From: Nitrosarchaeum sp.
Lineage (GTDB): Archaea > Thermoproteota > Nitrososphaeria > Nitrososphaerales > Nitrosopumilaceae
NCBI GenBank assembly: GCA_023265135.1
Contig: JAHFUM010000001.1
Coordinates: 437,632-501,631, forward strand
Reading direction: 5' to 3'
DNA length: 64,000 bases
Positions 49,988 through 51,242 of this stretch are shown here, in pieces. The first letter of the stretch is position 1. Each line of letters starts with the position of its first letter. The position numbers and the translations under genes are program-made. The notes beneath the pieces were generated by a model. The model was not told the origin of the DNA. It searched no databases and worked only from the letters and a program-made list of their open reading frames with translations.

Positions 49988-50000
49988 CTCAACATTTAAG
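49988..50000. repeat. Left target-site duplication of the SIR2 element
   Basis: CTCAACATTTAAG is repeated exactly at 51230-51242 on the other side of the element. Because the terminal repeats end in a run of G/C, the duplicated length can be read as 11 to 13 bases. Such direct flanking copies are the mark of integration by staggered cutting. Confidence 0.85.
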
Positions 50001-50056
50001 GGGGATATAGACAACAGTATTTTTGTAGCCCATACTACCACTCTTACGAAAGTAAT
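50001..50056 (+). repeat. Left terminal inverted repeat (TIR)
   Basis: Begins GGGGATATAGACAACAG and matches the right repeat in reverse for 51 bases without mismatch, then 4 of the next 5. Inside is a small hairpin, GTAG (50025-50028) pairing with CTAC (50035-50038) around a 6-base loop. The near-identity of both ends argues for recent activity. Confidence 0.88.
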
Positions 50057-50091
50057 TCCTAAATTGATCAGATTACAAACATAACTAACGT

Positions 50092-51027
50092 ATGACAAGT
50101 TTTTTTAGAGAACCTGATAAATCATATAAAATTATTATTCTATTAGGTGCAGGTGCCTCAAGACCAGCTGGTATTTTGACAGTATCTGAAATGACAGATG
50201 TATTTCTTAACAATCCAATGATTCTAAGACGTATTTTTGCTGGAAAAGAATTACAACAAAAAGAGCGAGATGAAATAAGTCAAGTTTTAAAAAAGCTGTC
50301 AGAAATTACTCAGGAACATCATGGAAAAAATGATTTAGAATACATTATGACTTTTTTGGGTCAGCTTGATGATTTAAAATATAGAGAATTTCTTAAATCA
50401 AAATATCCAACCTTGGAAGATGTACTAACTTTCAATGGAGCATCAGAAGATCAAGCCATAGAAGATTATAAAAATATGATACAAGAAAATATTCGTCATT
50501 TTTGCGAAAATATCACTGAAATGAAATATCTTTGGACTTTGGATGGATTAGTGTCAAAACCAATAAACATTTTCACTCTAAATTATGATGGAATAATAGA
50601 ATCCTATTGTGAAAAAAACAACTTGACATACACAGATGGATTTGATCCATTTTGGAATCCAGCAAAATTCAATGATAACAACGATGTCAATTTGTTTAAG
50701 ATTCATGGTTCATTGTATTGGATAAGACCAAAATTTGGAAAACCATTCAGAGTTCCACTAAGAGGCTTAAAAATTTCTCAAGTTCACTCAATTGATGGAT
50801 ATTTAGTTAATGAAATGATGCTTTATCCAAAACTCCAAAAAGACAAACAATCAGAAGTATTTTCATGGTTAGATCGTAAATTCAAAGATAGCCTAAACAA
50901 TGCAAACATCTGTATAATTATAGGATATAGTTTTCGTGATGATGAAATTAGAAATAGTATAATCGAGGCGCTTTCTGCAAAATACCTATCCTCATCATTT
51001 CCTAACCAAAGCCAGCAGATCTTGTGA
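50092..51027 (+). CDS. SIR2-like (SIR2_2 family) protein, probably C-terminally truncated
   Basis: A 311-residue SIR2-fold protein. The NAD-binding Rossmann motifs are intact: IIILLGAGASRPAGI near the N-terminus, FTLNYDGIIESYCE (the T-x-N-Y-D motif, about residue 187), FKIHGSLYWIRP (the catalytic-type His-Gly) and IIIGYSFRDDEIRNSI near the end. Prokaryotic SIR2-like proteins often are NADases in anti-phage or abortive systems. The usual last beta strand after the GYSFRDD helix is missing, replaced by a polar tail SSSFPNQSQQIL. It is the cargo of the inverted-repeat element. Confidence 0.85.
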   Translation: MTSFFREPDKSYKIIILLGAGASRPAGILTVSEMTDVFLNNPMILRRIFAGKELQQKERDEISQVLKKLSEITQEHHGKNDLEYIMTFLGQLDDLKYREFLKSKYPTLEDVLTFNGASEDQAIEDYKNMIQENIRHFCENITEMKYLWTLDGLVSKPINIFTLNYDGIIESYCEKNNLTYTDGFDPFWNPAKFNDNNDVNLFKIHGSLYWIRPKFGKPFRVPLRGLKISQVHSIDGYLVNEMMLYPKLQKDKQSEVFSWLDRKFKDSLNNANICIIIGYSFRDDEIRNSIIEALSAKYLSSSFPNQSQQIL

Positions 51028-51134
51028 ATCAATACTTTTTTCATCAAGTCAGAGACTGACAGACCACTAGCATTTGCATACTCTGTAATTGCTTTGAGCT
51101 CTCCTTGTGTTACTCGAGTCGATAACGTTGGCAT
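50823..51134 (-). CDS. Ribbon-helix-helix (CopG/Arc-like) protein, probably fused or truncated
   Basis: The N-terminal 38 residues (MPTLSTRVTQGELKAITEY, then ANASGLSVSDLMKKVLI) are a convincing ribbon-helix-helix DNA-binding domain. The rest, about 65 residues, is read antisense to the SIR2 gene and looks non-natural (rich in Leu, Phe and Ser), so the original C-terminus was probably lost by a deletion near 51000-51030. It starts at ATG 51134, just inside the right inverted repeat, with two direct repeats upstream that could be its operator. It could regulate the SIR2 gene or itself. Confidence 0.6.
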   Translation of the reverse strand: MPTLSTRVTQGELKAITEYANASGLSVSDLMKKVLIHKICWLWLGNDEDRYFAESASIILFLISSSRKLYPIIIQMFALFRLSLNLRSNHENTSDCLSFWSFG

Positions 51135-51140
51135 CTACAA

Positions 51141-51158
51141 TTGTTTACACTTGTTTAC
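51141..51158. promoter_or_regulatory. Direct repeats upstream of the RHH gene (candidate operator)
   Basis: TTGTTTAC occurs at 51141-51148 and again at 51151-51158, a 10-base period that puts both copies on the same DNA face. RHH proteins bind tandem or inverted 6-8 bp repeats in this way. They lie 7-24 bases upstream of the RHH start codon. Confidence 0.45.
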
Positions 51159-51173
51159 TCATAAGGTGTAGTG

Positions 51174-51229
51174 ATTATTTTCGTAAGAGTGGTAGTATGG
51201 GCTACAAAAATACTGTTGTCTATATCCCC
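51174..51229 (-). repeat. Right terminal inverted repeat (TIR)
   Basis: Reverse complement of the left repeat, ending CTGTTGTCTATATCCCC. It directly borders the right copy of the target duplication. It differs from the left end at one inner base within the 56-base match. Confidence 0.88.
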
Positions 51230-51242
51230 CTCAACATTTAAG
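51230..51242. repeat. Right target-site duplication of the SIR2 element
   Basis: CTCAACATTTAAG, identical to 49988-50000. The TTTAAG part, about 25-30 bases before GTG 51267, may serve as the TATA box of the LEA14-like gene, so insertion has landed exactly at its promoter, keeping a copy of the element next to the gene. Confidence 0.85.

What the first reader, a model, noticed from the sequence alone, without database searches (positions are those of the whole stretch)
49988..51242. A 1.2-kb inverted-repeat element moving a SIR2-like gene without a transposase
Seen directly: perfect 51-bp terminal inverted repeats (56 bp with one mismatch), flanked by identical direct copies CTCAACATTTAAG, and only a SIR2-like plus an RHH gene inside. 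The near-identical ends indicate recent movement. SIR2-like proteins are often NAD-consuming anti-phage effectors, so this could be a minimal mobile defence cassette mobilised in trans. I know no described element of this make-up in ammonia-oxidising archaea, but could not search.
Basis: partly seen in the sequence, partly recalled or inferred. Interest (0 to 1): 0.8.

Follow-up and report, generated by a model that had tools for sequence, protein, structure and literature searches.

The report
Mini-casposon carrying a truncated SIR2 gene
A 1.2-kb mobile DNA element without its own mobility enzyme has recently inserted into a gene promoter of an ammonia-oxidising archaeon; its ends and relatives show that it is a stripped-down casposon (a transposon moved by a relative of the CRISPR enzyme Cas1) carrying a cut-off SIR2 gene of the kind used in virus defence.

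Summary
In detail: 51-bp perfect inverted repeats, 13-bp direct repeats and no transposase (50001-51229). Fourteen same-genus genomes carry the empty site with one CTCAACATTTAAG, so the insertion is real. Related ends bound a family of 1-2.5 kb (or truncated) elements in other Nitrososphaeria. All use 13-bp target duplications over the TATA-box position, 21-25 nt before a start codon. Longer members keep fragments of a Cas1 casposase, 59-79% identical to that of a ~17-kb family-1 casposon. That casposon sits at a promoter also used by these elements, has a 13-bp duplication, and starts GGGGTATAGACA. The window ends finish ...TATCCCC-3'; TCCCC is the end signal shown experimentally for a casposase. 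So this is a natural non-autonomous mini-casposon, presumably moved in trans. Its cargo is not an intact two-gene defence cassette: SIR2 lacks its C-terminal ~265 residues including the last Rossmann strand, and the RHH gene is cut after ~39 codons, both at one deletion junction. Related elements carry TIR-domain and OLD/GajA-like genes, so defence cargo is plausible for the family but unproven here. No published natural non-autonomous casposon was found in the held library.

The parts
49988..50000 (.). Target-site duplication, left copy (CTCAACATTTAAG), pseudo-palindrome of the form CTYAANNNTTRAG
   Evidence: single copy in the empty sites of same-genus genomes
50001..50051 (+). Left terminal inverted repeat, 51 bp, begins GGGGATATAGACA
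   Evidence: family of ends
50092..51027 (+). SIR2-like gene, truncated: 311 aa; N164 and H205 kept, last Rossmann strand and C-terminal ~265 residues missing
50983..51017 (.). Deletion junction where the SIR2 and RHH coding sequences both end abnormally
   Evidence: alignment with the 563-aa homologue; RHH homology ends after about 39 codons
51018..51134 (-). 5' part of an RHH gene (DUF6290/NikA-like) reading inward from the right repeat, 95 bp from the end, as in related elements G182 and G094
51179..51229 (-). Right terminal inverted repeat, 51 bp, identical to the left one
51230..51242 (.). Target-site duplication, right copy; ends 24 nt before the GTG start (51267) of the downstream gene, at the TATA-box position

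Best explanation
The element is a natural non-autonomous mini-casposon: two casposon-type ends with 13-bp target duplications that have lost casposase and polymerase genes by internal deletion. Most likely a Cas1-family casposase supplied in trans recognised the ...TATCCCC-3' ends and inserted the element into the pseudo-palindromic promoter (TATA-box) site CTCAACATTTAAG; the staggered cut was filled in, which duplicated the site and so left a TATA box on each side. SHOWN here: ends, duplication, empty sites, family of related ends, casposase fragments in longer members, a casposon with PolB and Cas1 at a shared target. INFERRED: movement in trans, the identity of the helper, and the order of events (parent with full SIR2, RHH and casposase; deletion before or after insertion). 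The SIR2 remnant is probably a passenger, at most a compromised NAD-hydrolysing effector.
For: (1) Empty sites with a single 13-mer in 14 same-genus relatives. (2) Related 5' ends GGGGATATAGACA..TTTTGTAGCCCATAC abut 13-bp palindromes in about 10 other genomes; the reversed-pattern control gives 0. (3) Type-A elements G340, G182 and G094 contain casposase fragments 79/73/59% identical to the G212 casposase, against 32-42% for the other Cas1 proteins compared. (4) G212 holds a ~17-kb casposon (PolB 893 aa, HNH, HTH, Cas1) with ends GGGGTATAGACA and TSD CTTAAGTTTTGAG at the PRPP-synthase promoter, the same site used by type-A elements G094, G018 and G340. G182 has one end of each type. (5) Casposons of the own genome (C15), G179 and G180 start GGGGTAAAGACAG / GGGGTATAGATG / GGGGTATAGATG and have about 13-bp duplications. 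(6) The A. boonei casposase needs only the terminal TCCCC (PMC6614799); the M. mazei casposon TIR begins GGGATATAGGTAAC, and engineered mini-casposons move using casposase from the chromosome (PMC10359463). The window TIR start aligns with the G212 end better than shuffles (p=0.0002).
Against: No element with type-A ends and an intact casposase was found; the type-A members are deletion products or run off contigs. Beyond the first ~13 bp, type-A and casposon (type-B) ends differ. The G212 casposase lacks roughly 55-80 residues of its N-terminal domain and may itself be dead. The intact casposase of the own genome (C15) belongs to a different end type and a tRNA target. Empty sites could in principle be precise excisions, which casposons do make (PMC10359463).
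Confidence: 0.83

Rival explanations
1. A miniature element of a DDE-transposase insertion sequence (MITE-like), mobilised by an IS transposase encoded elsewhere.
For: Short size, perfect TIRs and TSD are the usual MITE anatomy.
Against: The longer relatives contain casposase fragments; no DDE transposase was seen inside any of the related elements read; the shared 13-bp TSD, GGGG-type ends and shared target sites point to casposons.
Confidence: 0.07
2. A site-specific integrated element: the 13-bp direct repeats are attachment-site cores of a tyrosine recombinase, because the same promoter sites are reused.
For: The same two loci are occupied in several genera (window locus in G181/G182/G183; PRPP-synthase promoter in G094, G177, G018, G212, G197, G340 and as a relic in the own genome).
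Against: The 13-mers differ between loci and, at the window locus, match the host's empty site, so they come from the target; long TIRs are not expected; casposons are themselves target-specific (PMC6614799).
Confidence: 0.04
3. A dead deletion product of a casposon that inserted as a full-length element at this site and shrank in place, never moving as a mini-element.
For: The interior is a deletion junction; related elements at the same locus in G181/G182 are larger.
Against: Same-genus genomes lack any longer version at the site; TIRs and TSD are still perfect, so insertion is recent and there was little time to shrink; G215 and G237 are similar 1.1-1.2-kb elements at other sites.
Confidence: 0.25
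4. A functional minimal defence cassette (SIR2 NADase effector with RHH regulator) under selection on a mini-element.
For: The SIR2 ORF is open, N164 and H205 are kept, best PADLOC match Aga_SIR2; related elements carry TIR-domain and OLD/GajA-like genes.
Against: Last Rossmann strand and C-terminal domain missing, RHH truncated; no second copy of the cargo found, the nearest homologue is 47% identical and without these ends.
Confidence: 0.12

Closest known systems
Family-1 casposons of Nitrososphaeria (thaumarchaea; NitAR1-C1 and others, PMC4046053, PMC6563490)
   Same: GGGG(A)TATAGAC-type ends (in the casposons read here), target duplications of about 13-15 bp, strong target preference, RHH genes; Sir2-like and OLD cargo known in casposons
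   Different: No casposase, no polymerase, 1.2 kb instead of roughly 10-20 kb; promoter (TATA-box) target instead of tRNA or ef-2 3' ends
Engineered mini-casposon of Methanosarcina mazei (PMC10359463)
   Same: TIR-cargo-TIR flanked by TSD, casposase supplied from elsewhere
   Different: The window element is natural, with 51-bp ends of another sequence and a 13-bp TSD
SIR2 proteins of short-Argonaute and other SIR2 defence systems (PADLOC Aga_SIR2)
   Same: N-terminal SIR2 fold with the TxNxD and HG motifs
   Different: No Argonaute or partner gene; C-terminus lost
MITEs and other non-autonomous insertion sequences
   Same: Life style: short, TIR-bounded, presumably moved in trans
   Different: Ends and probable helper belong to the Cas1 casposase class, not to DDE transposases

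Membership tests
Casposon (mobile element using a Cas1-family casposase) | Terminal inverted repeats | tested here: met
   51 bp perfect
Casposon (mobile element using a Cas1-family casposase) | Target-site duplication of about 13-15 bp with empty site in relatives | tested here: met
   13 bp; empty sites in same-genus genomes; 13 bp also in the G212, G179 and G180 casposons
Casposon (mobile element using a Cas1-family casposase) | Ends like casposon ends (3'-terminal TCCCC) | tested here: met
   GGGGATATAGACA, i.e. ...TATCCCC-3' (PMC6614799)
Casposon (mobile element using a Cas1-family casposase) | Encodes Cas1 casposase | tested here: not met
   No Cas1 in 50001-51229; fragments only in related G340, G182 and G094. 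Hence 'non-autonomous derivative', not a casposon proper
Casposon (mobile element using a Cas1-family casposase) | Encodes family B DNA polymerase | tested here: not met
   None inside the element
Casposon (mobile element using a Cas1-family casposase) | Integration catalysed by a casposase | not testable with these tools
   Needs biochemistry
SIR2 anti-phage defence system | Complete SIR2 domain with catalytic N and H | tested here: inconclusive
   N164 and H205 present; last strand (LIIIxP) absent
SIR2 anti-phage defence system | Partner or sensor gene or domain | tested here: not met
   C-terminal domain missing, no partner gene in the element

The most novel reading that the evidence does not exclude
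Nitrososphaeria host a family of natural mini-casposons that insert precisely over TATA boxes, duplicating the core promoter so that both neighbours stay transcribed, and that shuttle defence-type genes (SIR2, TIR, OLD) using casposases borrowed from full casposons, possibly guided by the basal transcription machinery (one member encodes TBP; TFB genes lie beside the G215 element and near the G018 end).
Probability: 0.35. Interest if true: 0.8.

Novelty: new variant of a known kind. Interest (0 to 1): 0.62.

Why it matters
Casposons are the proposed source of the CRISPR adaptation module, and one scenario needs a casposon to be immobilised and to lose genes near an immunity locus (PMC6452270). 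Natural, gene-poor mini-casposons carrying immune-type genes make such intermediates concrete. They also point to a second, promoter-centred target class for casposases, with a defined 13-bp site that can be tested directly in vitro.

Tried and rejected
IMG/VR scans with the end pattern and with SIR2 found nothing. The one non-archaeal pattern hit (Clostridiales, L072) lacks the GGGG start and a palindromic 13-mer at its end and was treated as chance. AlphaFold2 of the SIR2 ORF without an alignment gave pLDDT 37 and was discarded. C2:101-104 kb of the own genome has two more Cas1 genes, but a search there found no ends of the GGGG(A)TATAGAC type. G208 encodes a casposon-like region with a gene resembling one beside the type-A end of G182, but no such ends.

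Full report
OBSERVATION. The element lies at 50001-51229 (1,229 bp). Its ends are 51-bp perfect inverted repeats (56 bp with one mismatch), flanked by CTCAACATTTAAG at 49988-50000 and 51230-51242. An exact inverted repeat this long is far beyond chance (53 bp counting two palindromic target bases, against 14-17 bp in shuffles). Two ORFs lie inside: SIR2_2 on the + strand and an RHH of the DUF6290/NikA type on the - strand. No transposase is present.

IT INSERTED. A search of the 18 genomes of the genus gave matches to the flank ends in 14 relatives. In each of the 14, a contiguous site with one copy of the 13-mer and no element is read directly, for example ATAATAACTATCTCAACATTTAAGATATCTAAAAAATGAG. 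Casposons are known to excise precisely (PMC10359463), so an empty site alone does not exclude loss. The perfect repeats and the restriction to one species favour recent gain.

THE FAMILY OF ENDS. The left repeat found related ends in other genera, then by a pattern across 400 genomes of the order, with no hits for the reversed control pattern, and by a sequence-only profile. I call these ends type A. Complete elements with both target copies: G182 2,538 bp (CTTAAATGTTAAG, exact), G215 1,181 bp (CTTAAATTTTTAC, exact), G237 1,073 bp (two mismatches). Two more, G094 and G026, are split over contigs whose end sequences carry reverse-complementary copies of one 13-mer. The common start is GGGGATATAGACA and the common 13-bp target is CTYAANNNTTRAG. 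The IMG/VR viral collection has none.

THE PARENT IS A CASPOSON. The profile also hit G212 and G197. In G212 the end is followed by a family B polymerase (DNA_pol_B_2, 893 aa), HNH and HTH proteins, and Cas1. The two contigs overlap by 197 bp. The far end is a matching inverted repeat (about 65 of 70 positions) followed by the same 13-mer CTTAAGTTTTGAG, giving an element of about 17 kb. This has the gene content of a family-1 casposon; its ends (type B) read GGGGTATAGACA. Casposons in the own genome (C15:12073-25853) and in G179 and G180 start GGGGTAAAGACAG, GGGGTATAGATG and GGGGTATAGATG, with duplications of about 13 bp. Within the type-A elements G340, G182 and G094 are fragments of the G212-type casposase: 79, 73 and 59% identity, against 32-42% to the other Cas1 proteins compared. 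G182 has a type-A left end and a type-B right end. The own genome bears a casposon relic with a type-B end and a Cas1 C-terminus at a tRNA 3' end (C25).

FIT WITH EXPERIMENT. For the A. boonei casposase, the five terminal bases TCCCC are the only element-borne requirement, and a family-1 enzyme from Nitrosopumilus behaves similarly (PMC6614799). The window repeats end ...TATCCCC-3'. The M. mazei casposon repeat begins GGGATATAGGTAAC, and engineered mini-casposons moved with casposase supplied by the chromosome (PMC10359463). Aligned over 22 bases, the window end matches the G212 end better than shuffles (p=0.0002), and the C25, C15 and M. mazei ends less strongly (p=0.005-0.03); the G179 end alone is not significant (p=0.05).

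TARGET SITES. Two loci are hit repeatedly. The window locus (beside an amino-acid-kinase-family gene, PF00696) is also occupied in G181, G182 and G183 of another genus. The PRPP-synthase promoter is occupied in G094, G177 (relic), G018, G212, G197 and G340, and in the own genome by a decayed end at C21:430900, 6.7 kb left of the window. At the sites measured the duplication ends 21-25 nt before a plausible start codon. In this genome TATA-like words peak at -25 to -34 (27 and 23 against about 11-14 in most neighbouring bins). So the duplication covers the TATA-box position, and insertion leaves one copy on each side. Start-codon choice is mine, so the spacing is approximate to one or two codons.

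CARGO. The SIR2 ORF keeps GAGAS, TLNYD (N164) and IHGS (H205), but stops matching at ~residue 297. It lacks the final LIIIxP strand seen in the other relatives and the ~265-residue C-terminal part of its closest relative (47%, G027). RHH homology ends after about 39 codons. Both end at 50983-51017, so the element is an internal deletion of something larger. In G182 and G094 an RHH gene sits in the same place, reading inward about 100 bp from one end, in elements with casposase fragments. Sir2-like genes were noted in three casposons by the discoverers (PMC4046053), and a casposase-containing region of G222 carries one here. Other type-A elements carry a TIR-domain protein (G182), an OLD/GajA-like ATPase with HNH (G340), RusA (G094), TBP (G026), and secreted or repetitive proteins (G215, G237). 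Thus 3 of about 8 contents are defence-like, counting the window.

MECHANISM AND LIMITS. Best reading: a casposase supplied in trans used these ends. Not shown: the helper. No intact casposase with type-A ends was found, the G212 enzyme has a gap of 55-80 residues, and the own intact casposase (C15) belongs to another end type. Whether the element moved as a 1.2-kb unit or shrank after insertion is undecided; recency and similar small elements elsewhere favour the former.

NOVELTY. The held library returned no description of natural non-autonomous casposons; two key papers (PMC4779613, PMC5665730) were not held, so this is absence in what could be searched. Verdict: a new variant of a known kind.

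Noticed in passing
G000:C15:12073-25853 (L161:4074-17853): Complete 13.8-kb family-1 casposon in the window's own genome at a tRNA 3' end: Cas1 404 aa, PolB 910 aa, HNH, and a 945-aa cargo protein.
   Followed up: partly
G000:C2 about 92.8-105 kb (L162): PolB gene and two Cas1 genes in opposite directions about 1.1 kb apart; element ends not found.
   Followed up: partly
G000:C21:430900, 6.7 kb left of the window: Decayed type-A end beside the PRPP-synthase gene of the own genome, the site used by casposons in other genera.
   Followed up: yes
G000:C15:165253 (L006:5253): Solitary type-A end (42 of 51 positions) upstream of a stomatin-like gene, without a partner end.
   Followed up: partly
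L062 (G181), element to 4.5 kb further: At the window-equivalent locus, 170 bp of the neighbouring gene are duplicated on the far side of the element, and no right-hand end is visible.
   Followed up: no
L059:1-978 (G026): An element with these ends encodes a TATA-binding protein, while all sites measured for the family lie at TATA-box positions.
   Followed up: no
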